Shown piece after piece: positions 2,750 to 57,702 of a stretch of 64,000 bases of DNA (position 1 is its first letter; every line of letters begins with the position of its first letter). The position numbers and the translations under genes are program-made. The DNA is from Limonium bicolor (Eukaryota; Streptophyta; Magnoliopsida; Caryophyllales; Plumbaginaceae). The stretch is from positions 477,253,594-477,317,593 of the forward strand of contig CM041777.1 of NCBI GenBank assembly GCA_023374045.1. Direction: 5' to 3'. A model generated the notes under the pieces. The model ran no database searches. It had not been told where the DNA came from and was given only the letters and a program-made list of their open reading frames with translations.

Positions 2750-2783
2750 GGTACGAGGGCGTACCTTAGCTCTTTTAAGGGGG
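2750..2783 (+). other. LARD-1 internal hairpin plus polypurine tract
   Basis: GGTACG, loop AGGG, CGTACC (2750-2765) is followed 11 bases later by AAGGGGG (2777-2783) and then ATATACTG. The same order (hairpin, T-rich spacer, AAGGGGG, ATATACTG) recurs at 3081-3118, where it abuts the 3' LTR. This copy is not followed by an LTR start. Confidence 0.6.
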
Positions 2784-3080: not shown

Positions 3081-3116
3081 AAACTTCGAGGCGAAGTTTC
3101 TTTAAGGGGGATATAC
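3081..3116 (+). other. LARD-1 3' polypurine tract with hairpin
   Basis: AAACTTCG, loop AGG, CGAAGTTT (3081-3099), then CTTT and AAGGGGG (3104-3110), ends six bases before the LTR start TGAAATACCCC at 3117. A purine tract here primes plus-strand synthesis in LTR elements. It resembles the terminus of LARD-2 (30415-30451 on the minus strand). Confidence 0.8.
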
Positions 3117-7780: not shown

Positions 7781-8212
7781 TTTTTTGTTGATTGACTTGT
7801 GGAATGTTTTGGAAAACACTAACCGAGTTTAAGAGGAATTTCTAAAAGGAATGGTTGTGTGACTAACGGAGCCTTGAATGTGAAACTCACTTGGGTTGGT
7901 TCCTTCTTTTGGGTTGTTCCATTAGACATTGGCTGCTTAGGGTTTACGTTCTGCACTCTGTAGGACTGAGTGTTTGGGTATTGCTCTGGGTTTAGTGATC
8001 TGGGTAGGAATTTGGAAAAGGTCAACTTTGGTAATTCCTTCTTTGACTCTGGATACCATTTCATCCATGAGCCGGTTCTTGATGTTTTCGACGTGCGCGC
8101 GCGTCTTCAATGGTAACAGCAGGGGCTGTATATCCTCGCCCATAGGGGCATTGATATTTAACAGCAGGGGGCTTTATCCCCCGCCCATAGGGGCATTGAT
8201 ATTTCACATCTG

Positions 8213-11200: not shown

Positions 11201-12525
11201 TTACCTTGTTCCTCCTCTAGATTTTCTTTCTCCTTCTTTCTTCTTTCTTCCTCTCTTTCTTGCCCAAATCGGCCATATGGGGAATGGAGTTACCAAACTC
11301 CATTCCCATCACCCAAAGCATATAAAACAAGTGCAATTAAACTACTAATCCTTAAATTAATGCTAATTCATTTAAAGTGTTAAAACACAATTTCTAGGGT
11401 TTACCTTTTGAAGCTTTTAAGAGGGTTTTTAGCCCTTGGTTCAAGAAGGTGAATCCACCACCATTGCAAGGTTAATATTATGCTCAAAAGGGAGAAAGAA
11501 GGCAAGGTGTTACAATGGGCAAAAATCGGTTATCAAAGGGAGATGAAGAAAATATGAGTTTTTCATGTAGATTTTTACCTTAATGGAGAGAAGGAGACTC
11601 TAAGCTACCCATTGGTGTCATTTTCTCTTTGAATGGGGAAAACCCATGGAGATGAACTTCCTCATTTTTAAATTTTGAAAAGAGGGAAATGTAGAGGAGA
11701 ATGAGGGGATTACAAATATGTAATTATTTTTGTGATTGGAGCTCAAATGGAGGTAGGGCATGGAGAAGAAGAGGAAGCTTCCATGGTTGTGGAGGGGGAG
11801 CTCAAATCGCAGCCAGAGGAAGGAGAAGAGAGGGAGTACGGTGGAGTAGAAGGAAATGGGAGAGAGAGAAGAAAGTGAGAGGTGAGAGAGTATGTAGGTA
11901 CTCTTACCTTTGTCACTTTATTTGCTTTTTGCTCTCTTATTTAATTAACTAGTTACATGTGTGTGTGAGGGGGTTATTTGACTTATTAAAAATCGGTCCC
12001 ACTCAGTATTACTTGTTGGAGCGTTTTTCTTCTTTTACAGAAAACGCTCGTTATTTTACCCGGTTTAGGTACTGTTCACTAACCGGGCCCGTTTTCCGGA
12101 ATTTTCTTGTTTCTTTATTTTTATTGACTACTAAGCTCCCGTAAATGCTTAATAATTATTATTTAATGGTTTATAATTTTTACGGGTCTGTTTGACCACT
12201 TAAAAATCACGTTTTCGGTTTTCTCGAAAAACGTGCGTTAAAACCCTATTAGCGTCTTAATGCCTTATTTGGATCCGTTTTCTTCGGGAGTTGTTGCCAT
12301 ATATTATTTAGGTCTTATTACACCTTTAGAATCCATATAACACGCTAATCGAGGTCTCATACCTCCTATGGTTATTTAACGCTTATTTAGCGTTTTTCGC
12401 CTTTTAAGCGTTTCTTTATTTCTTTTGGATTTATTTTTCCTTACTATTATTAATTAGGTACCATTAGGCCCTTAAATACGTATTAGGTTAATTTTAATCC
12501 CTGTATTTAAGTTCGGGGTATTTCA
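8213..12525 (-). mobile_element. Solo LTR, Tekay-like, nested in LARD-1 LTR
   Basis: On the plus strand the insert reads TGTAACACCCC...GGGGTATTTCA, so its sense is minus. It interrupts the 47-bp array of the LARD-1 3' LTR; the host sequence resumes at 12526. It is 4313 bp and has no internal domain, primer site or second LTR, so it is best read as a solo LTR. Bases near 8310-8390 (CGGTCTGATGGACC block) match the LARD-2 LTR near 26000, so the families are related. A clean 5-bp target duplication is not visible (ATCTG before, GCAGG after). Confidence 0.75.
9850..10255. repeat. GC-rich dyad tandem array in solo LTR
   Basis: Five to six units of about 70 bp contain GACCGACCTTGCAAGTCCGG followed by CGCAAGGTCGGTC-type complements, so each unit can fold on itself. 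The array is much more GC-rich than its surroundings. The frames that stay open through it (plus 9764-10117, minus 9754-10282) follow from the repeat period. Preceded by an (AT)n run at about 9823-9840. Confidence 0.85.
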
Positions 12526-13254
12526 GCAGGGGGCTTTATATCCCTCGTCCATCAGGACATTTTTAATCTGACAGCAGGGGGCTGTATATCCCTCGTCCAT
12601 ACGGACATTTATATCTGGCGGTGGGGGCCATCTCTCCTAATTGGTATTATTCCATTCTTGAGTTATTGGTTCTTGGATCTATCTTATTTTTCCTAGTCCT
12701 TTGTGACTATTGAGTCTTCCAACTCCTAACGGGAATTGGGTTTAACTAAGGCAATGGATGTTCACTAACACATGATGTGGTTTTGTTTCACTAACCTTAC
12801 TTTTATGTTACTAACCTTTATTCTTATCCTGATATCTTGATTTGGTGATTTGTGAAATGTCTTGCTCCTCTGTGTGGTTTAAGTGATTGCTTTCAAGCTA
12901 ATATTTATTTAAGAGTTGTTTTATAAGTTTGTTTTTGGAGAATTGTACCAGTTCCATTCCAGGGAACTGACTCACCCCTCTCGGGGTGGGCTGCTTGGTT
13001 TCATCTTGCAGGTACAAGTTGATTTACAGGTGGCCACGAAGAGCATGAGTGATTGGGATGGGATTAGGTTTATGGAGAGTGAATGTATTTTATAATTGTT
13101 ATGTTTGTGTTAAGTTTTCTCGAAGTTCAGACCGTAACTTAGTTAATTGTAATGGTTGTAATTGGTGAGGTTGGTACCGGGTGTTTGGAGCCCGATGGTA
13201 TGTAGCACCTTTAGTTTATTTTCCGTGTTGTTTTATTATTATAGGGGTGTTACA

Positions 13255-25631: not shown

Positions 25632-25866
25632 GAAAGATTCACTTTTCTTAAAAAAAAGATTCATTTTTCTTGAACATTTAATTAACTATTGTTCAATGAA
25701 ATATTCACTTCTAAATAAATGAAAGGTTCATATTGTTCTCATATAAATTTGTGGTAAGATTCACTTTTCTTAAACAATTGATTCACTATTTTAAACAAAA
25801 GATTCACTTTTCTTAAACGAATGATTCATATTGTTCTCGCACAAGTTTGTGATATGATTCATTTTT
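25632..25866. repeat. Repeat C copy B, first fragment
   Basis: It matches 17725-17960 of copy A closely and stops at the LARD-2 insertion. The break falls inside GATATGATTCA|TTTTT, and copy B resumes at 40007-40012. Confidence 0.8.
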
Positions 25867-27704
25867 TGTAACACCCTCAACTACAACATCATACTTAACA
25901 TCAAACTGCAGCGGAAAACACAACTCAACATTTATTAATTCCTTGGTGTTACACGCCATTAACCACCCACGTGGTTAACAAGGCTAATACATATACATTG
26001 TATCGGTCTGATGGACCAGATTCCCGAGCATCTATACAATACAATACCGTTCCATTTCCAAAAATCCATATACATTACATTCCAACTATACCGAGTATTT
26101 ATACACTAATGCCGATAACAGTTTCGGTCTTACTACACCTACAATTTATAAGCAGTTTAATTAACTACCCACGCACATATAACCACCCCGTCCTACTCTC
26201 GAACGGATCAAGCTCCATTGTAGCTGAAAAGGAAAAAGGGTGGCCCCCCAAGGGGCTCAGCACCTTTGCTGGTATGGTAATCGTGCAGCCCGCATACTAC
26301 CGGGCCACGCACAACTAATTGTCGTCTAAGCATGCGGTTGATTATATTTAAATCATGCATGTAACTAAAAACACATAACATACGTACATTTAACACACAT
26401 CCAAACAATAGGACTCAAACGAGTCAGTCAACACATCAACAATTGTTAGATCACATTATTGCGTTCTTTAATCCCTTGAGGGTTTCTACCTTTATGGAGC
26501 TAACCCTTCACTAGACGACATTTACCCGTTTAGTCGGGTTATACTTAAATTCCTCGTATTATAACGTAGGGGTTAATACCCGTGATCAACATACTCAACA
26601 CAACCACACACATCACATATAAACATACATACAATACAACGCGGGGAGAGTCACGTGGGACTCGTACCCAAGATGAGAGTTAGTCTTCTCATTTGAGCCT
26701 AGAGAACTTTCTATTCCCATGCTAAGCTCATTACACAATAAATTATTGTTCCTCTTAGAGAACGTATACTTACTTAAGATGTGTCGGATATAACATAGTT
26801 CCCAACACATCGTACATACTCACTTTACTTAGATGCGTCGGTCTTAATATAGGCCCGATCACACCATACATATATCCCCCTAGCCCCGAACAATAATCAA
26901 GGTAGGTAAGCTTTGGTTAAGCTTGCGGGTGATTGTAATCCAAGAAGGAAAAACAACCATAACATAACAGAGAGGGAGTTAGAGCAACTATAGACATCAA
27001 CTCCCAAACAACACGCGCGACCGGAAAGACCGGATTCCTCACCCCCTATAATACATATATATATAGTTAAGAGCTCCATCATGGAACCTATCACATCTAC
27101 ACACACCATAGGGTGTTACAACCGGGTCAAACACAAAAGGGAGGTAAATATACTTACACGCACAAACAACACACAACCAACTCACGCATAGCCGTGGTTA
27201 GAACGTTCCCATGGTTTGGGTCGTCAAATCCGAATACCGATCTCTTATGTGATCCTAGATTGGGTTAGCTAAGGTTTAACACTTTCGAGGTTAAACGGTA
27301 TCGGAATTAAACACGCCACATAATTGAATTACTATAAAGTCATTTCATGCTTATTCTTGCAAGGTGGCAAACACACAGAAAAACAAGTTGGCATACAAGC
27401 CGGTGTAATCCGGTAGAAAACAGGTTGCAAGAAAACCATACCTGTCACCAAGGTCCACTCTATTGTGTCCTCTTATGTACCTCGAATAATTCTCGAACAA
27501 CTGGTAACATTACAATGGCTTTCATTAACATCGGGGTAATATGATTATTTAACGTCTAATGCCCATAGTTAACTCTTTTAACTAGTTAAATAACTTCACA
27601 TTTTTAACTTGTTTTACTTCCACATTTTACTACAACTTTTCACCCACTTAATTATCTTTATAACTCACCTAACATGTCTTAAACAACCTTATAACATCAT
27701 TACA

Positions 27705-27890
27705 TACCAACCTTGCAGGGTAGGTCCCAAGGTCGGTCGGAACCAGAAACATTCCCGTCTGCAAAATTTTAGCCTGGCCGACCTTGCCAAGGTCGGTCCT
27801 AAGGTAGGTCGAAGTCAGAAAGCTTCCTGGAGGGTATTCTGGGCCCGACCTACCTTGCCAAGGTCGGTCCTAAGGTAGGTCGAAACCAGA
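27705..27890. repeat. Dyad array in LARD-2 3' LTR
   Basis: Three units of about 70 bp contain GACCTTGCCAAGGTCGGTCC, where CCTTG pairs with CAAGG, and TAAGGTAGGTCG. The array at 37297-37495 in the other LTR is the same. Confidence 0.8.
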
Positions 27891-29948
27891 AACTTGTTTT
27901 TAAGTGTTTATTTCCCTCCAAATTCACCCAAATCTTTTCCTAATCATTCCATAACCTTTCCACATGTTTCCTACATGTTTAAACATCTTAAAACATGCAC
28001 TAAACCTTCCTCAATCATCACCCAACTTGTTACTCAATTTCTTACAAAAATTCCTAGCACTTATAACATTTTTCCTTAGGTTTTCTAAGTGGTGGATCAT
28101 GCTTACAATACCACTAACCAAAATGTTGCCTCACAAACATTACAACTACTCCAAAAGCATTATTTCTCACGAACACCTCTTTTACACAACTCATTAAGAT
28201 TGTTCCACAAGTTCATACTTAATCCTTCACAAGGCATTTTACCTCTTCGTTACCAAATTTTGCACAAGTCTTAACACTTCACATAACATAACTTTGGTGT
28301 GTAATAAACACCCGTTTGATTCTCTAAATCCTTCATGACCATTCCTAGGTCATCCTAGGGTTCATTAACACATTAATTCATTTTCTTTCACCAATTTAAC
28401 ACTTAACACTTCCTAGTACAACCTAGGTCACAATGCCTCGCCAAAACACTTAAAACTCTTGTTTTCCCAACTAAATTTTGCCATAGCTTCCCTAACACCT
28501 TCTTATCCCCAAACACTTAGGTTTTCACCTTTAGACAACCAAGAACACTCAATCCCTTAATACACATCCTTACACACAAACACATGGTTTTTCATCCTTT
28601 AGCCAACAAAGACATTCATCTTCACAAGAAGTGTTCTTTACACACAACTAAACCTTTAAACTACACTACATCACAATATAGTCCATAAACTTAAATTTCT
28701 TGGCACTTAGGCCCTTAAATAACATGGCTCTTAGGCCCTTAAATTGCATTAATCTTAAACACTGAATTTCCCACATAATAATTGCCTTTAACCTGCAAAT
28801 ACACACAACATCACATATGCCATTAATAACCTCCTTGAGGATAGTTTTCTATCTCATTTACCATTGGCTCTTTAGGTTATTTATGAAGCAATTATAGCTC
28901 AATTTCCTAAGGCACAAAACTACATTAAGAGAGGTCATTTACCTCTTTGTTTTCCAAGCTTTCTCACTTGTTTTCACTTGTTCTTTCTTGATTGAAAATC
29001 GGCAAGGAGCTTTTATCACTTGTCAATCTTCTAACCAATACACACATAAGCGTAATGAGATTTAATATTCATACTTAAACTCATATATAAACCCTAAATT
29101 TACATAAGTGTTTTAAACACTAAAATGGAAGTTTACCTTGGAATTTGAAAGAGAACTTGATTAAGTAATAAGAGAGGACTCCTCCTAGTCCTTTGAAGAT
29201 TGAATCAAGCTAACTGAAGAGCAAGATAATGCACCATTAAGAGGTGAATTTTTGGCCATGAACCAAAATGAGAGGAAACTTAGATTTTTTTTTTATTTTC
29301 CTTACCTTGAAGCAGAGGAGAATGACAAGGCATGAAAAGATGAGCTCAAGCTCCTTCAATGGAGATTCTTCATGGCACCAAAATGAAGTTCTTGAAGATT
29401 TGAAAAGAGGGAAATGAAGAGCTTGCTCCAACTAACACAAATATGGTCTTAGATTTTGAGTTGGAGCATGGAGTTGGATTTGGCAAGCAAAACATGGTGG
29501 AGAAGTATACTTGCTGTAGCAAAACGTTTTTGAATAAGGGAGGAAGAAGATGGAGATGGTGGGAATCAAAATAAATGAAGAGAATGAGGTGAGAGGCAAG
29601 CTTTAGAATATTTTGACTTATAAAGGTAAATAGTAACTTTTACTTTATTTCTTTTTCTTTTCTTTAGTTGGCTGACTAGGTTGGTGACTCCCCACCTTAA
29701 AAACCGTTCCCCCTTCAATATATAAGATATATATGTCCTTTGTTGACCAATTAAAACAACTTATGTTGACTTATGACTTAAACTAGCACTATTTGAGCAC
29801 TATTCACAAATTAGTGCACATAATTGTGAAATGTTTGATTTCTTATTGATTTAGACTTCCTAATGTGATACTAAGTAGTACACATGTTGATTAAAGAGTA
29901 ATGATGGGCATTTAGCAACTCAAAACCCATTTCTAAGACAATTTTTCA

Positions 29949-29982
29949 AAAATGTGCTTTAAGACTCCTTAAAGCACATTTT
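29949..29982. repeat. 34-base hairpin in LARD-2 3' LTR
   Basis: Arms AAAATGTGCTTTAAG and their exact complement flank a 4-base loop (ACTC on the plus strand). The same palindrome occurs at 39540-39573 and 62094-62127, and degraded forms in the LTRs at 18634 and 24235. Confidence 0.85.
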
Positions 29983-30414
29983 GTGTTTTAACTTGTTTTC
30001 AAGCTTGGGTTTCTTTAGTAATTGATTTAACATGTTCATTAGCATGTTAATAAGGTCTAGGAATGACCTTTAGGTCTTATACAAGGTTACACCAAGTCTA
30101 GGGCAAGTATTTGCTTAAATTGACTTTATGGTGTTTTCTGTGTTTTCTTTGGTTTAAATTGTCTACCAATGTTTCTTAAGGACTTAATTAGTCTTATCAA
30201 ATCATAATTGCATTATATCAAGTCTTGGTAGGCTCTTTGGGTCCTAACCAAGTTCATTCCAAGCTTAGAGCATGTTTTTGCTCAAACTGTCTTTATGGTA
30301 CTTTACTGTGTTTACTATGGTTTAAATTGTTCACTAATGTTTCTACGGCACTTTTTAGCCTTTATATACCATATTCTAATATTTAAAAAACATATCAAGG
30401 TTTGGGGTATTTCA

Positions 30415-30451
30415 ATCTACCCCCCTTAAAAGAACTTCGTCCTCGAAGTTC
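30415..30451 (-). other. LARD-2 polypurine tract with hairpin
   Basis: On the minus strand: GAACTTCG, loop AGGA, CGAAGTTC (30451 to 30432), then TTTT and AAGGGGGGTAGAT (30427 to 30415), then the LTR start TGAAATACCCC. As I recall them, Tekay/Del chromovirus elements end their internal region with a similar GAGGACGAA..TTTAAGGGGGG string. Confidence 0.85.
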
Positions 30452-31800: not shown

Positions 31801-31835
31801 CTACCCCCCTTAAAAGGGATTACGCCCACGTAATC
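31801..31835 (-). other. LARD-2 second hairpin plus polypurine tract
   Basis: Minus strand: GATTACG, loop TGGG, CGTAATC (31835 to 31818), then CCTTTT and AAGGGGGGTAG (31811 to 31801). It lies about 1.4 kb upstream (element sense) of the 3' tract and has the same layout. Confidence 0.65.
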
Positions 31836-35440: not shown

Positions 35441-35456
35441 TTCACTCTTATACCAA
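35441..35456 (-). other. LARD-2 primer-binding site (tRNA-iMet, degenerate)
   Basis: Minus strand TGGTATAAGAGTG, four bases inside the 5' LTR end, matches 10 of the first 12 positions of TGGTATCAGAGC. It fixes the minus orientation. Confidence 0.75.
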
Positions 35457-35460
35457 TTTT

Positions 35461-38400
35461 TGTAACACCCCCAACTACAACATCATACTTAACATCAAAC
35501 TGCAGCGGAAAACACAACTCAACATTTATTAATTCCTTGGTGTTACACGCCGTTAACCACCCACGTGGTTAACAAGGCTAATACATATACATCGTATCGG
35601 TCTGATGGACCAGATTCCCGAGCATCTATACAATACAATACCGTTCCATTTCCAAAAATCCATATACATTACATTCCAACTATACCGAGTATTTATACAC
35701 TAATGCCGATAACAGTTTCGGTCTTACTACACCTACAATTTATAAGCAGTTTAATTAACTACCCATGCACATACAACCACCCCATCCTACTCTCGAACGG
35801 CTCAAGCTCCATTGTACCTGAAAAGGAAAAAGGGTGGCCCCCCAAGGGGCTCAGCACCTTTGCTGGTATGGTAATCATGCAGCCCGCATACTACCGGGCC
35901 ACGCACAACTAATTGTCGTCTAAGCATGCGGTTGATTATATTTAAATCATGCATGTAACTAAAAACACATAACATACGTACATTTAACACACATCCAAAC
36001 AATAGGACTCAAACGAGTCAGTCAACACATCAACACTTGTTAGATCACATTATTGCGTTCTTTAATCCCTTGAGGGTTTCTACCTTTATGGAGCTAACCC
36101 TTCACTAGACGACATTTACCCGTTTAGTCGGGTTATACTTAAATTCCTCATATTATAACGTAGGGTTAATACCCGTGATCAACATACTCAACACAACCAC
36201 ACACATCACATATAAACATACATACAATACAACGCGGGGAGAGTCACGTGGGACTCGTACCCAAGATGAGAGTTAGTCTTCTCATTTGAGCCTAGAGAAC
36301 TTTCTATTCCCATGCTAAGCTCATTACACAATAAATTATTGTTCCTCTTAGAGAACGTATACTTACTTAAGATGTGTCGGATATAACATAGTTCCGAACA
36401 CACCGTACATACTCACTTTACTTAGATGTGTCGGTCTTAATATAGGCCCGATCACACCATACATATATCCCCCTAGCCCTGAACAATAATCAAGGTAGGT
36501 AAGCTTTGGTTAAGCTTGCGGGTGATTGTAATCCAAGAAGGAAAAACAACCATAACATAACAGAGAGGGAGTTAGAGCAACTGTAGACATCAACTCCCAA
36601 ACAACACGCGCGACCGGAACGACTGGATTCCTCACCCCCCACACACCATAGGGTGTTACAATCGGGTTAAACACACAAGGGAGGTAAATATACTTACACG
36701 CACAAACAACGCACAACCAACTCACGCATAGCCGTGGTTAGAACGTTCCCATGGTTTGGGTCGTTAAATCCGAATACCGATCTCTTATGCGATCCTAGAT
36801 TGGGTTAGCTAAGGTTTAACACTTTCGAGGTTAAACGGTATCGGAATTAAACACGCCACATGAATGAATTACTATAAACTCATTTCATGCTTATTCTTGC
36901 AAGGTGGCAAACACACAGAAAAACAAGTTGGCATACAAGCCGGTGTAATCCGGTAGAACACAGGTTGCAAGAAAACCATACCTTTCACCAAGGTCCACTC
37001 TATTGTGTCCTCTTATGTTCCTCGAATAATTCTCGAACAACTGGTAACATTACAATGGCTTTCATTAACATCGGGGTAATATGATTATTTAACGTCTAAT
37101 GCCCATAGTTAACCCCTTTAACTAGTTAAATAACTTCACATTTTTAACTTGTTTTACTTCCACATTTTACTACAACTTTTCACCCACTTAATTGTCTTTA
37201 TAACTCACCTAACATGTCTTAAACAACCTTATAACATCATTACATACCAATCCCCATCATTAGAAGCCTTAAAAAAAATTTTTATATATAAGTGGCCGAC
37301 TGACCTTGCAGGGTAGGTCCCAAGGTCGGTCGGAACCAGAAACATTCCCGTCTGCAAAATTTTAGCCCGACCGACCTTGCCAAGGTCGGTCCTAAGGTAT
37401 GTCGAAGTCAAAAAGCTTCCTGGAGGGTATTCTGGGCCCGACCTACCTTACCAAGGTCGGTCCTAAGGTAGGTCGAAATCAGAAGCTTGTTTTTAAGTGT
37501 TTAATTCACTCCAAATTCACCCCAATCTTTTCCTAATCATTCCATAACCTTTCACATGTTTCCTACATGTTTAAACACCTTAAAACATGCACTAAACCTT
37601 CCTCAATCATCACCAAACTTGTTACTCAATTTCTTACAAAAATTCCTAGCACTTATAACATTTTTCCTTAGGATTTCTAAGTGGTGGATCATGCTTACAA
37701 TACCACTAACCAAAATGTTGCCTCACAAACATTACAACTACTCCAAAAGCATTATTTCTCACAAACAACTCTTTTACACAACTCATTAAGATTGTTCCAC
37801 AAGTTCATACTTAGTCCTTCACAAGGCATTTTACCTCTTCGTTACCAAATTTTGCACAAGTCTTAACACTTCACATAACATAACTTTGGTGTGTAATAAA
37901 CACCCGTTTGATTCTCTAAATCCTTCAAGACCATTCCTAGGTCATCCTAGGGTTCATGAACACATTAATTCATTTTCTTTCACCAATTTAACACTTAACA
38001 CTTCCTAGTACAACCTAGGTCACAATGCCTCGCCAAAACACTTAAAACTCTTGTTTTCCCAACTAAATTTTGCCATAGCTTCCCTAACACCTTCTTATCC
38101 CCAAACACTTAGGTTTTCACCTTTAGACAACCAAGAACACTCAATCCCTTAATACACATCCTTACACACAAACACATGGTTTTTCATCCTTTAGCCAACA
38201 AAGACATTCATCTTCACAAGAAGTGTTCTTTACACACAACTAAACCTTTAAACTATATTACATCACAATATAGTGCATAAACTTAAATTTCTTGGCACTT
38301 AGGCCCTTAAATAACATGGCTCTTAGGCCCTTAAATTGCATTAATCTTAAACACTGAATTTCCCACATAATAATTGCCTTTAACCTACAAATACACACAA

Positions 38401-40006
38401 CATCACATATGCCATTAATAACCTCCTTGAGGATAGTTTTCTATCTCATTTCCCATTGGATCTTTAGGTTATTTATGAAGCAATTATAGCTCAATTTCCT
38501 AAGGCACAAAACTACATTAAGAGAGGACATTTACCTCTTTGTTTTCCAAGCTTTCTCACTTGTTTTCACTGGTTCTTTCTTGATTGAAAATCGGCAAGGA
38601 GCTTTTATCACTTGTCAATCTTCTAACCAATACACACATAAGGGTAATGAGATTTAAGATTCATACTTAAACTCATATATAAACCCTAAATTTACATAAG
38701 TGTTTTAAACACTAAAATGGAAGTTTACCTTGGAATTTGAAAGAGAACTTGATTAAGTAACAAGAGAGGACTCCTCCTAGTCCTTTGAAGATTCAATCAA
38801 GCTAACTGAAGAGCAAGATAATGCACCATTAAGAGGTGAATTTTTGGACATGAACCAAAATGAGAGGAAACTTAGATTTTTTTTATTTTCCTTACCTTGA
38901 AGCAGAGGAGAATGACAAGGCATGAAAAGATGAGCTCAAGCTCCTTCAATTGAGATTCTTCATGGCACCAAAATGAAGTTCTTGAAGATTTGAAAAGAGG
39001 GAAATGAAGAGCTTGCTCCAACTAACACAAATATGGTCTTAGATTTTGAGTTGGAGCATGGAGTTGGATTTGGCAAGCAAAACATGATGGGGAAGTATAC
39101 TTGTTGTATAAAAACGTTTTTGAATAAGGGAGGAAGAAGATGGAGATGGTGGGAATCAAAATAAATGAAGAGAATGAGGTGAGAGGCAAGCTTTAGAAGA
39201 TATTTTGACTTATAAAGGTATATAGTAACTTTTACTTTATTTCTTTTTCTTTTCTTTAGTTGGCTGACTAGGTTGATGACTCCCCACCTTAAAAACCGTT
39301 CCTCCTTCAATATATAAGATATATATGTCCTTTGTTGACCAATTAAACAACTTATGTTGACTTATGACTTAAACTAGCACTATTTGAGCACTATTCACAA
39401 ATTAGTGCACATAATTGTGAAATTTTTGATTTCCCATTGATTTAAACTTCCTAATGTGATACTAAGTAGTACAAATGTTTATTAAAGAGTAATGATGGGC
39501 ATTTAGCCAATCAAAACCCACTTCTAAGACAATGTTTCAAAAATGTGCTTTAAGACTCCTTAAAGCACATTTTGTGTTTTAACTTGTTTTCAAGCTTGGT
39601 TTTCTTTAGTAATTGATTGAACATGTTCATTAGCATGTTAATAAGGTCTATGAATGACCTTTAGGTCTTATACAAGGTTACACCAAGTCTAGGGCAAGTA
39701 TTTGCTTAAATTGACTTTATGGTGTTTTCTTGTGTTTTCTTTGGTTTAAATTGTCTACCAATGTTTCTTAAGGACTTAATTAGTCTTATCAAATCATAAT
39801 TGCATGATATCAAGTGTTGGTAGGCTCTTTGGGTCCTAACCAAGTTCATTCCAAGCTTAGAGCATGTTTTTGCTCAAACTGTCTTTATTGTACTTTACTC
39901 TGTTTACTATGGTTTAAATTGTTCACTAATGTTTCTAAGGCACTTTTTAGCCTTTATATACCATAGTCTAATATTTAAACAACATATCAAGGTTTGGGGT
40001 ATTTCA
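35461..40006 (-). repeat. LARD-2 5' LTR
   Basis: Element sense TGAAATACCCC (40006) to GGTGTTACA (35461). It contains the dyad array 37297-37495 and the palindrome 39540-39573. Open frames at 35565-35912 and others recur in the 3' LTR only because the LTRs are duplicates. Confidence 0.9.
37297..37495. repeat. Dyad array in LARD-2 5' LTR
   Basis: Same three-unit array as 27705-27890. It is preceded by about 50 bases, including an A/T run at 37270-37290, that the other LTR lacks. Confidence 0.8.
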
Positions 40007-41285: not shown

Positions 41286-42443
41286 GCAATTTCACGTATG
41301 AATTCAGAGTCAAAATCACACCCAAAATGTTGCAAAACTAATGCCAACAGATAAGAAATGTTCCGGTAAGTGTAAACGGTATTAGATATCAGATAAACAC
41401 AATAAAAATTACCATTCACTTGACATACGAAAGCCTTAACACATTTTATAAACTTCAAGAGAATTACTCCAAACAAATCATCCATAGTTAAGTCAAATAG
41501 CAGAATGGAAATGTAAAACTATCGGGGTGTTACCGCCACACTCAAAATCACTGAGTGCTCAGGCTTAACCCAACCAAAACAAATCCAAAATATTTCCAAC
41601 ATTATAAAGTAAATGCATTCCAAACAACAACTCAACTTAACAATCTGAAAAGCAGTTCGGTTCGTTCATCCTAAACTATTTGGTAGCGTGTCCCCAATTT
41701 CCCAATTCAGCCATAGACACCTACGATCAGAAAACATCAATGGAAAACGCAAAGGGATTGCGTAAATCAGTAAAACTGAATAAACATTATTCAACACGCA
41801 AAATACATTTGAAACTCATTTATATTTGCAAAAAAAATAACTCACACAAATGAAACATTTCCAAAATCACCATCAGCAAAAGTATTTCGGGGGAAAACTT
41901 TCAACAAAATACAATTATCAGTATACACAGACGACACCCAAATTGGGGTTGCAACAATAATTCCCACCTCACCCTAAGTCCTTAAGTGTGCACACCCCCC
42001 AGAAGGTACTTTTGACCCAAAGGAGTAGATCATAGAGCTTAACTGCAAGTAATGTCTACAGGCAAAGTTATATAAATATTCACGGGGTACAAAGTACCAA
42101 CAATTCCACACGGAGTACCACAAGGTACCATCAATATACACAGAGTACCATAAGGTACCATCAACCCAACAATTAATCCAATGAAAGTCTCCCAAAAAAC
42201 ATTTATCCAATACTGATTGCAAAACCATACCATCCAAATCACACGGGGGAAAATAAATCCTGAATCCAACAACACCAAAACAGAGTTTAATCCAAACCAT
42301 TGGTATTTTGCAAAACACTTGCGTGATAGAAGATGATGAGCACACTGTTTACCTGGATACGCTCACCGCTATGAAGATAACCCAGCCAAAACATTAGAAG
42401 CACCCATCAGAGAACTCGGGGTCTAGAATTGTGAAACAGAGAT

Positions 42444-44003
42444 TGATAAGTGTGAAATTGATATGGTTTTATAGGTGCTAAATTCTTTTTATGCAACCTT
42501 TTTATGCACTTTCTCACACTTATCGTATGCTTTTCATGACTCTTACTTTGGGCAAAATCTGATGCAAATTTATATTTAAAAACAGGAAATGACGGTGAAA
42601 TTCATAGTTCTCCTCAAGAGCTTTCCAACGCCGCAAACGGGGAGCAAATCAGAGCTCTTACGAACAATTTGGACCCTGTCGAAGTTTACGGAAAAAAAAA
42701 GGCACGAATATACAGGTGTCCTGCTGACCTGTCCGGCCCATTGACCCGGACATGTGTAACGTGTCCGGCAAACTGCCCCGGACAGGTGGTCTGGACAGGC
42801 CCCAAAAGTATATTTTTTCGAATTTTTCACATGTCCGGCTCTCCTGTCAACCTGTGACCCGGACGTGCTCAGAAGAACAGAAATATTTATGACCACGAGT
42901 GCAGGACAGAGATTTCGAACATATACGCGTCCAGCCAGACTGTCCAGCTAAGTGACCCAGACGTAGAGCCGGATGTCTCACAAACGAGAGAAATCTCGCC
43001 TGACAACTCTATCTCACGTCGGCTAAGTGACCTGGACGTGTGTATTTTGTGTGCAATAATTTCATTTTAAGGAGCATTCGCGAGGGTAGGGAAAAGACAT
43101 TCAGAACTCACGCACGAACAGAGGATACGCCGCGCTTCTCTCATTCTCTTGCCCTGCCGTGACCACTTCAACTCCGGAGAAGAAGATTCTGTCCAGATTC
43201 GCTCATCTGCTCAACCTCTCATCTAGTGAATTTCAAAACTAATATCAAGATGATTTCTACTCTCTTCTTGTATTTGTTCTTTGATTATGCTCGGCTAAGA
43301 GGGTTAGACTCCGGGGATGGTTATCTAACTAAAATGATTTTGTAATTCCAAGTACTAGTCGGTTCGAGATTTTCTGTCGATTGTTGCACGTTAAGTTATC
43401 TATGTGCTTTCAATAAAAGTAGCTAATTTATTGATTGCTTTACGAATTCCATTTGAGCGAGATTTTTGATAAAATGGAATGGTTGATTAACCTGTAAACT
43501 TGTGGAAAATTATACTGGATAGGTTAGATTTTCCCTCAAGTGCAAACTTTAATTCTTCGCGCACATTCTGTCTATTCATGTTGTGCTGAATCTACATTAG
43601 ATCTAGTACGTTCTGCTAGGCGAGTTCTTGAGGCTAGGATTTAGTCTTTATTAGGAATTTTTCCAATCGACATCTCAAACTAACCAACAGGAATTGCATA
43701 ATCTGATAGTCGAAAAAGATAACCTGACCCGGAGTTCCATTTCACACATAGTTTTCATTGAATTTATTTGCTCAAAAATTTACTAGTTTCTCTTTTTTTA
43801 ATTCACAAAACCAAACAACAGACAACCCTTCTATTTGCTGTTTCCCTAGGATTAGATTTAATCACAAAGTCCCGTGGATTCGACCCCGGTATCTTATAGT
43901 TCACTATACTCATTGATCGGGATTTATTGCAACCTGTAGGAATTTAATTTATTACTTCTAGGATTAATTCATAGTTTTTAGTAGATCAAAATTCTCAGTT
44001 GCA
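42444..44003 (+). repeat. Outer Athila 5' LTR
   Basis: TGATAAGTGTGAAATTG... to ...GTTGCA, 1560 bp. It carries a GC-rich dyad array at 42714-43040. The partner LTR is 57703-59290. Confidence 0.92.
42714..43040. repeat. CCGGAC dyad array in outer Athila 5' LTR
   Basis: Repeated GTCCGG and CCGGAC in opposite orientations (for example CCTGTCCGGCCC, ACCCGGACATG, CCCCGGACAGG), about 270-600 bases into the LTR. The same array lies at 57960-58300. It opens spurious frames on both strands. Confidence 0.8.
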
Positions 44004-45176: not shown

Positions 45177-45414
45177 TGATAGAAGTGTCCAAATGAGCAA
45201 GATTTATAGGTGTATTTCATATATAATATTAGCACTTTTCTTGCTCATTTCTCCACTTCGGTTAGTTTTCCTCTAGTTTATGTTTTATTGTTTATCTCAC
45301 AAATTTATTGGTTTAACATGAGGAAAACCAAGCTGGGAGTAAAGTAGATAAAGAGACAAACGCATAGACGCAAACGGCTCAGAAAACGGACTTATAACGA
45401 AGAATGTAGAGCCG

Positions 45415-45730
45415 GTCAAACAGAGTCACGCGAGAGTCACGCGGTGGACTGGTGCAACCGCCCCCCTAAGTCGCGGACGTCACAAGAGCAACCGCCGGGC
45501 GGACGAGGCTGAGTCAACCGCCACTTAATGGGGGTGAAGGAGGCGGACGTGAGAGCAGCAACCGCCTCGCGGTCGACACAGAGGCTACCGCCTCTTAACT
45601 CGCGGACAACACTGAGGCTACCGCCTCGCGGACAACACAGCTCGGACAACATGAGGCTACCGCCTCGCGGACAGCACAGAGGTTACCGCCACTTATTGGG
45701 CGGTAACAACAGGCGGACACAAGCAGAACC
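45415..45730. repeat. CGCGGAC array in inner Athila 5' LTR
   Basis: Units of about 25-30 bp combine ACCGCC(T)C with CGCGGACAACAC and GAGGCT, very GC-rich inside an AT-rich element, followed by GCGGTAACAACAGGCGGAC. The matching array is at 49735-50060, where one unit differs. Confidence 0.8.
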
Positions 45731-45936
45731 GGCGGTCGTGACTAATTATCAGTCTCGACCAGTTTTTCTTCGCCCGTCTTCGCCGTCTGCAACTCGCACA
45801 ACTCGTCCACTGCCATATCTATCTACTACGCACCGCCTACCTTAATTTCCTCACGCGTGAGCTTTGTCCCCTGCGCAATCAATGAAGCAATCAATGCTCT
45901 TCTTCATCTGCAATCAAATTCGTACGGATCCAAACC

Positions 45937-45946
45937 TCTATATAAA
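45937..45946 (+). promoter_or_regulatory. TATA box of inner Athila LTR
   Basis: CTCTATATAAACCC is a canonical plant TATA box about 760 bases into the LTR and about 205 bases after the GC-rich array. The 3' LTR has the same box at 50259-50268. It probably marks the U3/R start. Confidence 0.65.
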
Positions 45947-47218
45947 CCCACGCCCTCTGCTCAATAAAATCATTCCCTTCCTCACAATCCAAAGCAGACC
46001 ACATAGACCACCGTATCATCCCATCCAGTAAATAATCGCTCACTCCCACGATCCATTCCATCCTCTTATCTCCCACTTCTCCATTTTAGTTTTATTCTTC
46101 ATTCCACCACGAAGCAGAAACACGATAAGAAGAACAGAAGAAAAGGGAGCTGGAGCAGAAGCGAATCGCAGTCCAGTCTCCGCCGGCAGTCTCCAAATTA
46201 ATGGCTATTTCTGTTTCCTTTTTATTACTGTTAATGTCTGAGTGATTTTACTCGTATCCTAGGATGGGGTTTGACCTTAAATAATTCAGACTTATATTAA
46301 TACCAAGTTTGCTTATAAATATTTGTTTTGTCTCTCTAAATTATTAAATGCTTAATAACTGATCATTTTTATGCATTTACGGTTTCTCTTATTTCAATGA
46401 TTTTGTAAATCTGAGAATAGACCACAAAGAGAGATAAACGTTAGATATTATTCTCCTTGATTAGCAGATAAAATCCATCGCTGTTATTAAAAGAATTCTC
46501 ACTTAAACTAATTAATGATTTTAGACTTTTTCTGATTGTAAAAAGTCTATTGATTTAATTAAGAGTTGTCCTTATCTATGATTTAGGAAGGCCACAAGAT
46601 TAATTCTTAAACAGACAAATAAGAGCAAATTAGGATTATAATTATTGTCTGTACTTAAATAAATATTTATCACCTGTTTCACTTATTAGACTTGTTTTAA
46701 TTCCTTTCAGCAAATATTGTTAATGCTTATTCTGACAAAATACTGCATTTATTTGGTAGCTATCAATATATGATTTTGAGATAGTTAAAGTACCACAAAG
46801 GAATTAATCTTGGTATTTACACTCCGGATTGAGCAGGAAAATACTAAGGCTATTAATAGGAGTTCGTAACTGACAATTATTAACTCTAATAGACAATAAA
46901 TATTTGAGACAGGATTATAAAATTGTTTAAGTAATTTAGGAAATTCCCCCGCTATCCTAGGATACCTTTTTTACATCCATTTTACTTTATTATGTATTTA
47001 TTATTTCTGTACTAATTCTAAAAACCAAGCTTGCCCTGGCTAAACCCCAATTTATATTTTATGCATTTTTATTTATCTTTTTTTTTACATTAACTAAACT
47101 GGATAATTAATTAGATAATTGCGAAGTCTCTGTGGATACGACCTTGTTGTACTACAAAGATTGGGTTCACTGCCCATATTAGAAGATAGTTTAACTGCTA
47201 TTCTGCCCAACAAGTTTT

Positions 47219-48514: not shown

Positions 48515-48545
48515 ACTTGAGGCTGAAGCTCAAGTGTGGGGGAAG
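48515..48545 (+). other. Inner Athila hairpin/purine module A
   Basis: ACTTGAG and CTCAAGT pair across GCTGAAG (48515-48535) and run straight into GTGTGGGGGAAG. First of three such modules in this element. Confidence 0.6.
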
Positions 48546-48727
48546 TCCAAAACACGCTAGCAAAAATAAAATCAGGGGAGTACCAGTTTCTTTAAACTTG
48601 CTTTTATTTAAATAAAATATGCAGAGGAGAATTTATATGCTTAAATGAATATTCGTGAGCTTCGTGTTCTCTCTATTTTATCTACTTACCGAAAAGGCCT
48701 TCTGAGGCTTTCCCTTGTTTTTCTGGT

Positions 48728-48765
48728 GAACAATGAGGACATTGTTCAAATTAAGTGTGGGGGAG
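48728..48765 (+). other. Inner Athila hairpin/purine module B
   Basis: GAACAATG, loop AGGA, CATTGTTC (48728-48747), then five bases and AAGTGTGGGGGAG (48753-48765). The outer element has the same module at 56805-56845. Confidence 0.7.
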
Positions 48766-49462: not shown

Positions 49463-49501
49463 TTTTGCTTGAGGACAAGCAAAAAGATAAGTGTGGGGGT
49501 G
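49463..49501 (+). other. Inner Athila 3' PPT with hairpin (module C)
   Basis: Arms TTTTGCTTG and CAAGCAAAA around loop AGGA (49463-49484), then four bases and AAGTGTGGGGGTG (49489-49501), which abuts the 3' LTR. This is the plus-strand primer. Confidence 0.8.
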
Positions 49502-51540
49502 TGATAAGTGTCCAAATGAGCAAGATTTATAGGTGTATTTCATATAATATTAGCACTTTTCTTGCTCATTTCTCCACTTCGGTTAGTTTTCCTCTAGTTT
49601 ATGTTTTATTGTTTATCTCACAAATTTATTGGTTTAACATGAGGAAAACTAAGCTGGGAGTAAAGTAGATAAGATAAAGAGACAAACGCATAGACGCAAA
49701 CGGCTCAGAAAACGGACTTATAACGAAGAATGTAGAGCCGGTCAAACAGAGTCACGCGAGAGTCACGCGGTGGACTGGTGCAACCCCCCCTAAGTCGCGG
49801 ACGTCACAAGAGCAACCGCCGGCGGACGAGGCTGAGTCAACCGCCACTTAATGGGCGGTGAAGGAGGCGGACGTGAGAGCAGCAACCGCCTCGCGGTCGA
49901 ACAGAGGCTACCGCCTCTTAACTCGCGGACAACACTGAGGCTACCGCCTCGCGGACAACACAGCTCGCGGACAACACTGAGGCTACCGCCTCGCGGACAG
50001 CACAGAGGTTACCGCCACTTATTGGGCGGTAACAACAGGCGGACACAAGCAGAACCGGCGGTCGTGACTAATTATCAGTCTCGACCAGTTTTCTTCGCCC
50101 GTCTTCGCCGTCTGCAACTCGCACAACTCGTCCACTGCCATATCTATACTACGCACCGCCTATCTTAATTTCCTCACGCGTGAGCTTTGTCCCCTGCGCA
50201 ATCAATGAAGCAATCAATGCTCTCTTCATCTGCAATCAAATTCGTACGGATCCAAACCTCTATATAAACCCACGCCCTCTGCTCAATAAAATCATTCCCT
50301 TCCTCACAATCCAAAGCAGACCACATAGACCACCGTATCATCCCATCCAGTAAATAATCGCTCACTCCCACGATCCATTCCATCCTCTTATCTCCCACTT
50401 CTCCATTTTAGTTTTATTCTTCATTCCACCACGAAGCAGAAACACGATAAGAAGAACAGAAGAAAAGGGAGCTGGAGCAGAAGCGAATCGCAGTCCAGTC
50501 TCCGCCGGCAGTCTCCAAATTAATGGCTATTTCTGTTTCCTTTTTATTACTGTTAATGTCTGAGTGATTTTACTCGTATCCTAGGATGGGGGTTTGACCT
50601 TAAATAATTCAGACTTATTATTAATACCAAGTTTGCTTATAAATATTTGTTTTGTCTCTCTAAATTATTAAATGCTTAATAACTGATCATTTTTATGCAT
50701 TTACGGTTTCTCTTATTTCAATGATTTTGTAAATCTGAGAATAGACCACAAAGAGAGATAAACGTTAGATATTATTCTCCTTGATTAGCAGATAAAATCC
50801 ATCGCTGTTATAAAAGAATTCTCACTTAAAACTAATTAATGATTTTAGACTTTTTCTGATTGTAAAAAGTCTATTGATTTAATTAAGAGTTGTCCTTATC
50901 TATGATTTAGGAAGGCCACAAGATTAATTCTTAAACAGACAAATAAGAGCAAATTAGGATTATAATTATTGTCTGTACTTAAATAAATATTTATCACCTG
51001 TTTCACTTATTAAACTTGTTTTAATTCCTTTCAGCAAAATTGTTAAATGCTTATTCTGACAAAATACTGCATTTATTTGGTAGCTATCAATATATGATTT
51101 TGAGATAGTTAAAGTACCACAAAGGAATTAATCTTGGTATTTACACTCCGGATTGAGCAGGAAAATACTAAGGCTATTAATAGGAGTTCGTAACTGACAA
51201 TTATTAACTCTAATAGACAATAAATATTTGAGACAGGATTATAAAATTGTTTAAGTAATTTAGGAAATTCCCCCGCTATCCTAGGATACCTTTTTACATC
51301 CATCCTTTTACTTTACTTTACTGTATTTATTATTTCTGTACTAATTCTAAAACCAAGCTTGCCCTGGCTAAACCCCAATTTATATTTTATGCATTTTATT
51401 TATCTTTTTTTTACATTAACTAAACTGGATAATTAATTAGATAATTGCGAAGTCTCTGTGGATACGACCTTGTTGTACTACAAAGATTGGGTTCACTGCC
51501 CATAATTAGCAAGATAGTTTAACTGCTATTCTGCCCAACA
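49502..51540 (+). repeat. Inner Athila 3' LTR
   Basis: TGATAAGTGTCC to GCCCAACA, near-identical to 45177-47212. GC-rich array at 49735-50060; TATA box near 50259-50268. Confidence 0.92.
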
Positions 51541-54390: not shown

Positions 54391-54948
54391 AAAATTGTCA
54401 AGCCCTTGTATGATCTTCTGCAGAAAGATGTGAAATTTCAGTTCTCAAAGGGGTGTTTGAAAGCCTTCCAGACTATCAAGAGTAAGCTCATTTCTGCTCC
54501 TATTGTGGTTCCTCCTGATTGGTCTCTTCCTTTTGAGATCATGACAGGTGCCAGTGATTATGCTGTTGGTGCTGCACTCTGTCAGAGGAAGGACAAAATT
54601 CTAAGGGTTATCACTTATAAAAGTAAGACTCTATCTGAAGCCCAAAAGAATTACACCACTACTGAAAAGGAGCTACTTGTTGTGGTATTTGCTCTTGATA
54701 AGTTCAGGCCATATCTACTAGGAAGTAAGGTCATTGTCCACACGGACCATTCTGCATTGAAGTACCTCTTCCAAAAGAATGATTCTAAGCCCAGACTCCT
54801 GAGATGGATCTTGCTCCTCCAAGAATTCGATTTGGAAGTCGTTGATAAGAAAGGAAAGTAGAATGGAGTTGCAGATCATCTGTCTAGGCTTGAGACTCCA
54901 GATGATGGGGTTCCCATAAATGAATTCTTCCCTGATGAGACAGTCTTT
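54391..54948 (+). pseudogene. pol: Athila RNase H and connection to integrase
   Basis: RNase H removes the RNA strand during reverse transcription. The frame open to 54861 carries [11 protein letters not shown] (D51 of the ATG frame at 54406), YTTTEKELL (E87/E89) and [11 protein letters not shown] (D114), the D-E-D set. A TAG at 54859-54861 cuts it off, but the same frame continues ([11 protein letters not shown]) into integrase, so the TAG is the only lesion here. Confidence 0.87.
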
Positions 54949-56382
54949 GTGATTGGGAAAGTTAAAGAGCCATGGTATGCTGACCAGGCTAACTATCTTG
55001 CCTCTAGTTTGATTCCTCATGATCTAAGCTACAACCAGAGGAAGAAATTTTTGGCTGAAGCCCGTCATTATGTTTGGGAGTACCCTTATCTCTTTAGGGT
55101 GTGCGCTGATGGTTTGATTAGAAGGTGTCTTCCCGATGAAGAGATTGAAAGTGCGATTGAGTTCTGCCATTCTCGAGAGGCAGGTGGACACCATGGTCCC
55201 ACTAGGATAGCTGCTATGGTGTTAGAGTGTGGTTTCTATTGGCCCACTCTACACAAGGATGTCCACTGCTTCTACTCTCACTGTGATAATTGCCAGAGGA
55301 TGGGGAACATTTCAAGAAGGCCTGAGATGCCTCAGAAGGGAATTCTTGAAGTAGAGTTGTTTGATGTTTGGGGTATTGATTTCGTTGGCCCATTTCCCTC
55401 TTCTCTTGGAAACCACTACATCCTTGTTGCTGTAGATTATGTTTCCAAGTGGGTCAAAGCAATCCCCTGCCCTTCTTTTGATGCTAAAACTATGGTTAAA
55501 TTTTTGAAGAAGAACATCTTTACTAGATTTGGAGTGCCCAGAGCTATCATCAGTGATGGTGGTTCTCACTTTTGCAACAAGGCCTTTGATTCCTTGATGT
55601 CTAAGTATGGGGTGACTCATATGGTTGCTTTGCCTTATCATCCCCAAACTAATGGTCAAGCAGAAGTGAGTAACCAAGAGCTAAAATGGATTCTTCAAAA
55701 GACAGTTAATTCCTCGAGGAAGGATTTGTCTGTCAAACTAGATGATGCTCTATGGGCTTATAGAACTGCATTCAAGACTCCCATTAGGATGTCTCCTTAT
55801 AAGTTAGTGTATGGGAAGTCTTGCCATCTCCCAGTTGAGATAGAGCATAAAGCCTATTGGGCTCTGAAAGCCCTGAACTTTGATCTAAATGCTGGCGATG
55901 AGAAGCGAAAGTTTCAATTGTCTGAGCTGGAGGAATTAAGGGAGCAAGTTTATGACAGCTCTAGGATCTACAAGGAACACTCTAAAAGAATCCATGATCA
56001 GATGATCCCGAGGAGAGATTTCAGGGTTGGTGATTACGTGTTGTTGTATAACTCTAGACTTCGTCTGTTTCCTGGAAAGCTCAAGCCCCATTGGGCCGGC
56101 CCATTTAAGGTTGTGGGAGTCACTTCCTATGGTGCGTATGAGCTAGAGAACAGGTCTGGAGAGGTCTTCAAGGTGAATTGTGCTCGTCTGAAGATGTACC
56201 TTGGCTCTGCCTTTGCTCTGCCTTCTGCACCTGGAGTATCCTTGATTGAGAGTTCCTCTTCTACTACTCCTGTTTCTGATGTTACTCCAACACCGAATTC
56301 TGAATCTTTGAAGAAGTCGTGCATGCAATGGCGTTTCCGACTGAAGAAAGCCCTTGCAAGCTGCTGTGGTGGCCCTCCTTGA
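54949..56382 (+). pseudogene. pol: Athila integrase, open frame
   Basis: Integrase inserts element cDNA into the chromosome. The 477-residue stretch from 54949 is open. It has an N-terminal zinc site (H74, H81, C112, C115), the core with D144 (WGIDF), D203 (ISDGG) and E239 (QAEV), giving the D-x35-E spacing, then the [17 protein letters not shown] segment and a C-terminal [12 protein letters not shown] motif. No chromodomain follows, as expected for Athila. The ATG is internal to the old polyprotein, so expression depended on readthrough of an upstream frame that is now broken. The serine/threonine-rich tail (residues ~428-460) is unusual. Confidence 0.9.
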
Positions 56383-56446: not shown

Positions 56447-56588
56447 GGTTTGTGTCTCTTTTCATTTTCTTAGTTAGCTGTTTGTTTTACTTTTTTCTCT
56501 TTTAGCTTGTGGTGTGTTGACTGGTGCTATGCTTACTACAAGATCCTTGGCTCTTATTATTTTTCTACTAATGATTTTGTCTGGTTCC

Positions 56589-56665
56589 ACTTGAGTTCTT
56601 CTGGCTTAGCAGATAATATTATCATCTTGCTTACTTCATCGCTTAGCTGAACTCAAGTGTGGGGT
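56589..56665 (+). other. Outer Athila hairpin/purine module A
   Basis: ACTTGAGTTC (56589-56598) and GAACTCAAGT (56649-56658) are exact complements across a 50-base loop and lead into GTGGGG. Equivalent of 48515-48545, with a longer loop. Confidence 0.5.
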
Positions 56666-56804: not shown

Positions 56805-56845
56805 AAGCAATGAGGACATTGCTTCACTCTAAGTGTGGGGTGGGG
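56805..56845 (+). other. Outer Athila hairpin/purine module B
   Basis: AAGCAATG, loop AGGA, CATTGCTT (56805-56824), six bases, then AAGTGTGGGGTGGGG (56831-56845). Confidence 0.7.
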
Positions 56846-57661: not shown

Positions 57662-57702
57662 TTTTGCTCGGGGACAAGCAAAAGGCTAAGTGTGGGGTGA
57701 TT
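57662..57702 (+). other. Outer Athila 3' PPT with hairpin (module C)
   Basis: TTTTGCTCG, loop GGGA, CAAGCAAAA (57662-57683, one C-A mismatch), then AAGTGTGGGGTGATT (57688-57702) and the LTR start TGATAAG at 57703. Confidence 0.75.

What the first reader, a model, noticed from the sequence alone, without database searches (positions are those of the whole stretch)
30415..30451. AGGA-loop hairpin placed just upstream of polypurine tracts in unrelated retrotransposon lineages
Four elements of two lineages share a layout: a 6-9 bp stem, loop AGGA or a near variant closed by G-C, 4-11 bases, then the purine tract. LARD-2: stem GAACTTCG, loop AGGA. LARD-1: stem AAACTTCG, loop AGG; second copy stem GGTACG, loop AGGG. 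Inner Athila: GAACAATG and TTTTGCTTG, both loop AGGA. Outer Athila: AAGCAATG (AGGA) and TTTTGCT-G (GGGA). Stems differ but stay paired, which suggests selection on structure, not sequence. In coding Tekay relatives the string may also encode the pol C-terminus, but LARDs and Athila tails are non-coding. A role in plus-strand priming, RNase H positioning or RNA packaging is inference.
Basis: partly seen in the sequence, partly recalled or inferred. Interest (0 to 1): 0.88.

Follow-up and report, generated by a model that had tools for sequence, protein, structure and literature searches.

The report
Hairpin beside retrotransposon second-strand primers
Two branches of plant Gypsy-type retrotransposons in one genome carry a small hairpin with a GG-containing loop just upstream of the purine tract that starts second-strand DNA synthesis; its stems differ in sequence but mostly stay paired, so the shape itself appears to be kept, perhaps to help cut that primer at the right place.

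Summary
Six of the seven hairpins are perfect, one has a mismatch, and an eighth was missed. In 200 kb sampled without regard to hairpins, 7 of 9 TTAAGGGGG tracts have a perfect stem of 6 bp or more within 15 nt upstream, against 3 of 40 other tracts and 5.4% of random points. At 80 tract-anchored genome sites such a stem precedes 38 of 40 Athila-type and 27 of 40 chromovirus-type tracts; the other 15 have mismatched or shorter stems. Paired changes occur in three of four groups; 93% of inner pairs are Watson-Crick and 0 of 5000 arm reassignments reach that; relatedness is not controlled. In the one coding copy seen both hairpins follow the pol stop. The constant part is a GG loop closed by G-C, not AGGA as such. 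Best mechanism (inferred): the hairpin pauses minus-strand synthesis, placing RNase H at the tract's end; stem-to-tract-end spacing is 12-15 nt in 76 of 96 units, near Ty3 RT's reported ~13 bp. Predicted folding support is mixed. Untested at the bench.

The parts
30432..30451 (-). LARD-2 terminal hairpin, 8 bp, loop AGGA
   Evidence: in the RNA minimum-energy fold of its stretch, z -2.47
30415..30431 (-). LARD-2 spacer TTTT, tract AAGGGGGG (30420-30427) and edge; LTR starts TGAAATACC at 30414
   Evidence: 17 nt from stem base to LTR
31818..31835 (-).
   Evidence: same unit in 7 of 8 genome copies L064-L071, one of them with a G.T closing pair (L064 shows none in its 3 kb)
31804..31811 (-). LARD-2 internal purine tract AAGGGGGG
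3081..3099 (+). LARD-1 terminal hairpin, 8 bp, loop AGG; tract 3104-3110; LTR TGAAATACC from 3117
2750..2765 (+). LARD-1 internal hairpin, 6 bp, loop AGGG; tract 2777-2783
48727..48748 (+). Inner Athila internal hairpin (s2), 9 bp, loop AGGA; tract 48753-48763
49463..49484 (+). Inner Athila terminal hairpin (s3), 9 bp, loop AGGA; tract 49489-49499; LTR start TGATAAG at 49502 by sequence
   Evidence: z -3.05
56805..56824 (+). Outer Athila internal hairpin (s2), 8 bp, loop AGGA; tract 56831-56840
57662..57683 (+). Outer Athila terminal hairpin (s3), 9 positions with one C.A mismatch, loop GGGA; tract 57688-57697; LTR start TGATAAG at 57703 by sequence
48515..48542 (+). Inner Athila first tract (s1), no GG-loop hairpin; a different inverted repeat ACTTGAG/CTCAAGT overlaps the tract
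56588..56664 (+). Outer Athila first tract (s1), no GG-loop hairpin; 11-bp inverted repeat CACTTGAGTTC/GAACTCAAGTG with a 50-nt loop overlaps the tract
54862..56379 (+). Outer Athila integrase reading frame (rve, H2C2); ends upstream of all three tracts

Best explanation
The hairpin and the purine tract form one unit for plus-strand priming. Shown by sequence: the unit is hairpin (mostly 6-9 bp, GG loop, G-C closing pair), a short spacer (T-rich in the chromovirus type), then the tract. In the elements examined it occurs at the terminal tract and at an internal tract, and in three of four groups its stem has changed by paired substitutions. Inferred: minus-strand reverse transcriptase, having copied the tract, meets the hairpin in its RNA template and pauses at the stem base. 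Its RNase H site then lies about 13 bp behind, at the 3' end of the G run, and makes the cut that frees the primer end. The internal unit would supply a second plus-strand start upstream.
For: Association with tracts: 7 of 9 against 3 of 40; 38 of 40 and 27 of 40. In the 65 sites with a perfect stem, found without any rule on the loop, the loop holds GG in all 65 (read). Pairing kept through change: 33 distinct hairpins; 18 units; 26,255 of 26,720 copies of one motif paired. Conservation: column identity 0.96-1.00 in both arms against 0.57-0.90 in the 34 nt upstream (51 of the 80 sites, subfamilies picked partly by their 5' arm, the 3' arm free). Outside pol: L088, L093. Spacing from stem base to end of the G run (96 units): 12-15 nt in 76; modes 12 (chromovirus-type with LTR start), 14 (without), 15 and 15 (Athila with and without). 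Ty3 RT sites are given as ~13 bp apart from preliminary studies (PMC5371799, passage seen). Elements in three bacterial assemblies, judged plant contamination, carry the same unit (L092-L094).
Against: No bench data. The predicted hairpin is not always the favoured fold: in an 85-nt context its inner pairs exceed 0.5 probability in 33 of 40 Athila-type but only 17 of 40 chromovirus-type sites. In a longer context, leaving the tract out, as if occupied, raises chromovirus-type sites from 22 to 31 of 40 but lowers Athila-type sites from 29 to 23. In the window the hairpin is absent from the minimum-energy fold of 5 of 8 units. 15 of 80 sites lack a perfect stem of 6 bp; in group Athila s3 the changes seen break or weaken a pair. 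The first Athila tract (s1) lacks the hairpin in the window and in L093. The spacing had no control and could be chance, as there are only about four independent unit types.
Confidence: 0.42

Rival explanations
1. The hairpin is an RNA packaging or Gag/nucleocapsid binding site: exposed GG in a small loop on a G-C closed stem is bound by Gag, and non-autonomous LARDs keep it so as to be packaged in trans.
For: The loop core GG and the closing G-C are the constant part while stems vary, as expected for a loop-binding protein; LARD-2 copies keep both units (7 of 8). That retroviral nucleocapsid prefers G-rich loops is recalled, not from a call.
Against: It does not explain why the stem base sits 0-9 nt from the tract in 95 of 96 units, internal ones included, rather than elsewhere.
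Confidence: 0.22
2. The palindrome acts as DNA, for example as a hairpin in single-stranded minus or displaced plus strand, ending strand displacement or protecting the primer region.
For: Covariation cannot tell RNA from DNA pairing; a reused tract, as proposed for Ty3 (PMC5371799, passage seen), implies displaced strands.
Against: Plus-strand synthesis from the tract runs away from the hairpin; the GG loop is conserved beyond what a DNA fold would seem to need (inference).
Confidence: 0.1
3. The hairpin has no function now: pairing is inherited from an ancestral sequence, and the double changes are a few old events carried along by copying.
For: Much of the variety consists of family-level variants; the C-G to T-A change could be one event. 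Shuffles ignore relatedness. Group Athila s3 shows no paired change.
Against: Second Watson-Crick pairs occur at several positions in three groups (terminal positions 2 and 7, internal 3, 5 and 6, Athila s2 position 6), plus a reversed pair in L092 and L093; flanks diverge more than the arms (the contrast is small, 0.90 against 0.99-1.00, in Athila s2).
Confidence: 0.1
4. The pairing is a by-product of conserved codons at the pol C-terminus.
For: The terminal string can be read as an acidic peptide in one frame.
Against: The longest open run upstream is 53 codons over the 22 tracts listed (one of these, L083:3172, is not an element unit); in coding L088 pol stops 12 nt before the internal hairpin and about 270 nt before the terminal one; the outer Athila hairpins lie beyond the integrase frame.
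Confidence: 0.04

Closest known systems
[quoted passage not shown] passages)
   Same: Plant LTR elements; inverted repeat tied to the PPT; multiple PPT copies; authors propose it helps RNase H form the primer
   Different: There the PPT lies in the loop, the right arm is inside the LTR, arms average 28 bp, and upstream PPT copies lack it; here the hairpin is wholly upstream, mostly 6-9 bp with a GG loop, and internal tract copies have it too
U-box / TCTT upstream of PPTs (retroviruses, Ty1, fission yeast Tf elements; PMC10085805, passages seen)
   Same: cis signal immediately upstream of the PPT
   Different: Single-stranded T-rich sequence, not a hairpin; the chromovirus-type spacer TTTT here may be the same kind of signal in addition
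Ty3 PPT in SHAPE-MaP of yeast gRNA (PMC11381356, passages seen)
   Same: Same superfamily; PPT near structured RNA
   Different: The PPT itself is in a low-probability pairing; the passages seen mention no upstream GG-loop hairpin
Conserved Hairpin Site of fungal GalEa Copia elements (PMC5445492, passages seen)
   Same: Conserved hairpin beside an LTR
   Different: Directly after the 5' LTR, in elements without a primer binding site, not at the PPT

Membership tests
Sirevirus-type PPT inverted repeat | Left arm ends at the PPT, PPT in the loop, right arm inside the 3' LTR | tested here: inconclusive
   The hairpin described here has both arms upstream of the tract (which looked only upstream). 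Whether these elements also have a Sirevirus-type repeat was seen only in folds of window stretches: LARD-2's G run pairs with the LTR edge.
Sirevirus-type PPT inverted repeat | Only the terminal PPT has it; upstream copies lack it | tested here: not met
   Units without an LTR start carry the hairpin: 23 of the 40 chromovirus-type sites sort as internal, 17 of the 40 Athila-type sites as s2.
Athila (outer and inner element) | Gag, RT, RNase H, integrase of plant Ty3/Gypsy type with close plant relatives | tested here: met
Outer element: PF03732, PF00078, PF17917, PF00665; integrase relatives named from many plants among the 120 listed of 7969. The inner element has LTRs and a TGGCGCCG primer-site-like string but its coding was not scored.
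Chromovirus / Tekay (LARD-1, LARD-2) | pol with C-terminal chromodomain | tested here: inconclusive
   Three LARD fragments gave no Pfam hit. The coding copy L088 with the same units and LTR start has SH3_Tf2-1 (7.4e-28) and a sub-threshold Chromo match (7.3e-4; 19.9 against cut-off 25.1). The name Tekay was not tested.
Rfam RNA family | Match above gathering score | tested here: not met
   0 matches in the window.

The most novel reading that the evidence does not exclude
A GG-loop hairpin is an ancestral part of the plus-strand priming site of plant Ty3/Gypsy elements, shared since before the chromovirus and Athila branches split: a measured brake in the RNA template that stops reverse transcriptase so that RNase H, one enzyme-length behind, cuts at the tract's end, with a second such unit acting as an internal start.
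Probability: 0.33. Interest if true: 0.88.

Novelty: new variant of a known kind. Interest (0 to 1): 0.72.

Why it matters
How RNase H picks one exact cut at the polypurine tract is an old question in reverse transcription. [quoted passage not shown] Here one genome holds tens of thousands of tract copies, and the sampled ones carry a tract-linked hairpin in several natural variants, with a spacing close to the enzyme's own reported length. That makes the question directly testable and offers a signal for finding the 3' ends of non-coding elements.

Tried and rejected
Rejected: coding constraint; chance; Rfam family; AGGA loop as a strict requirement. Led nowhere: viral contigs patterns gave only chance-like matches (51 stretches, no AGGACA in the 60 nt upstream of any; 12 stretches, by eye no stem of 6 bp); integrase searches of viral contigs found nothing or one distant relative; a genome-contig search gave 4 loci, one of them (L095) distant and without the unit. 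Two LTR starts (24235, 61653) have no tract before them and so could not be tested. Of the places listed (100 each) I fetched 40 and 40, chosen by hand across the lists without sight of the flanks, all on contig C1. The arm table required GG in the loop and picked the best register, and required a 5' G and 3' C or T at the closing position, so loop and closing counts from them lean that way; the perfect-stem counts had no such requirement. In one search units without a recognised LTR start include three s3-type Athila sites (L117, L123, L139). Not done: a control set of Copia tracts, a tree-aware covariation test, a control for the spacing, and the count for CAWTGAGGACAWTG (not completed).

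Novelty searches: (open-access PMC papers only; some searches listed only part of the papers found). I opened ten papers, by passages or named sections; none of the viewed text describes this hairpin. Subscription papers and preprints were not searched.

Full report
What was checked. The window is 64 kb of a 2.92 Gb genome (G000, contig C2) with nested LTR elements. Self-BLAST gave the LTR pairs: LARD-2 on the minus strand (LTRs 25860-30414 and 35454-40006), outer Athila (42443-43994 and 57702-59281) and inner Athila (45183-47212 and 49506-51540), as aligned. LARD-1's 3' LTR starts at 3117 by sequence. The outer Athila has gag, RT, RNase H and integrase matches; the three LARD fragments scanned have no Pfam match.

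Observation. Starting instead from purine tracts gave ten element tracts: eight have a GG-loop hairpin, including a new LARD-2 internal unit (GATTACG-TGGG-CGTAATC, 31818-31835 minus), and two (the first tract of each Athila) do not; those two have other inverted repeats that overlap the tract. By a fixed rule (perfect stem of at least 6 bp, loop 3-8, within 15 nt) 8 of 10 pass, 1 of 6 non-element tracts passes, and 6.1% of 6000 random points pass; the sites are not independent.

Unbiased sample. Twenty 10-kb stretches at fixed places on C1 and C2 held 9 TTAAGGGGG tracts; 7 pass, against 3 of 40 other AAG..GGGG tracts and 5.4% of 20,000 random points. Of the two that fail, one (L073:7132) has a mismatched version of the internal hairpin and one (L083:3174) does not look like an element unit. 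A further 40 kb gave 5 tracts, none of that type and none passing.

Genome scale. TAAGTGTGGGGG occurs 20,534 times against 190 for the pattern read backwards, and many listed places pair about 700-770 nt apart, as the two Athila units in the window do. TTTTAAGGGGGG occurs 106,705 times against 550. I fetched 122 nt around 40 of the 100 listed places of each. A perfect stem of 6 bp or more lies upstream in 38 of 40 and 27 of 40; in all 65 the loop holds GG, though no rule asked for it. The remaining 2 and 13 have mismatched or shorter stems; each of the 80 has at least 5 of the 7 innermost pairs when the best GG-loop register is taken.

Covariation. The 80 sites hold 33 distinct hairpins in four groups. 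Several positions carry more than one Watson-Crick pair: chromovirus-type terminal position 2 (C-G, T-A) and 7 (A-T, G-C); internal 3 (A-T, T-A), 5 (T-A, G-C) and 6 (A-T, G-C); Athila s2 position 6 (A-T, G-C). Athila s3 has none: its changes break or weaken a pair. Unpaired cells also occur in the other groups (for example C.A at internal position 2 in 4 of 14 distinct hairpins). 92.9% of the six innermost pairs are Watson-Crick; reassigning 3' arms within groups gives 84.0% on average, at most 90.9%, and 0 of 5000 reach the observed value; sliding the register by one gives 32.8%. The closing pair is G-C in 32 of 33. An earlier set of 18 units that includes the window and L092/L093 behaves alike. 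For one pair the whole genome was counted: TTYGAGGACRAAGTT 26,720, of which TTTG..CGAA 143 and TTCG..CAAA 322, leaving 26,255 (98.3%) paired. These controls do not remove relatedness: two main variants, each in many copies, make up the total.

Conservation. Among copies of four subfamilies (n 7 to 23; 51 of the 80 sites) mean column identity is 0.57-0.90 in the 34 nt upstream of the hairpin, 0.96-0.99 in the 5' arm and 0.98-1.00 in the 3' arm. Subfamilies were chosen partly by their 5' arm; the 3' arm was not used.

Outside the genome. Three bacterial assemblies hold Athila-type sequence, which I take for plant contamination. L093 and L094 share the stretch checked; it has ACATTG-AGGA-CAATGT before AAGTTGGGGGG, and L092 has CATTG-AGGA-CAATG in the same place. 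Relative to the window's CAATG/CATTG these reverse one base pair and keep the pairing. L093 also has a first tract without a hairpin after a 2004-codon open frame, a layout like that in the window.

Not codons. None of the 22 tracts listed has an upstream frame open for more than 53 codons. L088 is a coding chromovirus-type copy (gag, protease, RT, RNase H, sub-threshold integrase core, SH3_Tf2-1, sub-threshold chromodomain). Its pol stops at 6490-6492; the internal hairpin is at 6505-6521 and the terminal one at 6767-6786, just before its LTR at 6803. Whether that stop is original cannot be told from one copy.

Mechanism. Stem base to end of the G run is 12-15 nt in 76 of 96 units (80 fetched, 8 window, 8 from the 200 kb sample), with modes 12, 14, 15 and 15 in the four classes; stem base to LTR start is 16-19 nt in 41 of 45 units with an LTR start. 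A review of Ty3 RT gives, from preliminary studies, about 13 bp between polymerase and RNase H sites (PMC5371799, passage in section 13). This suggests that a template hairpin pauses the enzyme so that RNase H rests at the end of the tract. The step from spacing to function is inference. Predicted folding gives mixed support: strong for Athila-type sites, weaker for chromovirus-type sites; leaving the tract out of the fold helps chromovirus-type and hurts Athila-type sites.

Known work. The nearest published structure I found is the Sirevirus inverted repeat, in which the PPT sits in the loop and only the terminal PPT has it (PMC2829016, sections 8 and 18). The hairpin here differs in both respects, though LARD-2 may have a similar second pairing of tract and LTR edge. 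A 2013 paper said a search for PPT hairpins in other LTR elements is warranted (PMC3601003, passage). Ten searches of open-access papers turned up no description of this hairpin in the text I viewed; papers outside that library were not searched.

Verdict. The structure is real, appears to be under selection and is widespread in this genome; its link to priming is supported by position, and the pausing mechanism is a testable proposal.

Noticed in passing
window 48515-48535 and 56588-56659: The first tract of each Athila lacks the GG-loop hairpin but overlaps a different inverted repeat (ACTTGAG/CTCAAGT; CACTTGAGTTC/GAACTCAAGTG).
   Followed up: partly
window 30390-30430 (-): The LARD-2 tract is predicted to pair with the LTR edge, so two hairpins would stand side by side, the second like the Sirevirus arrangement.
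   Followed up: partly
L073:8640-8657 and L081:7298-7315: A palindrome (GTACTAAATTAATAGTAC, GTACTAAATTCATAGTAC) directly abuts AAGTGGGGGC in two copies of another repeat; its identity is unknown.
   Followed up: no
L092, L093, L094: Contigs filed under bacteria (Nomurabacteria, Solirubrobacter, Geminicoccus) look like plant Athila-type elements, i.e. contamination; L093 and L094 share the stretch checked.
   Followed up: partly
G000:C1:10052972-10081463 (listing): LARD-2 terminal units recur about every 9.5 kb four times in a row, suggesting tandem LTR-internal arrays.
   Followed up: no
window 475-1213 and 12519-13254: 98.5% identical direct repeats 12 kb apart around LARD-1 sequence, with 1-483 similar to 7751-8208 at only 90%; the arrangement was not resolved.
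   Followed up: no
window 24235 and 61653: Starts of LTRs without tract or hairpin before them, likely solo LTRs.
   Followed up: partly
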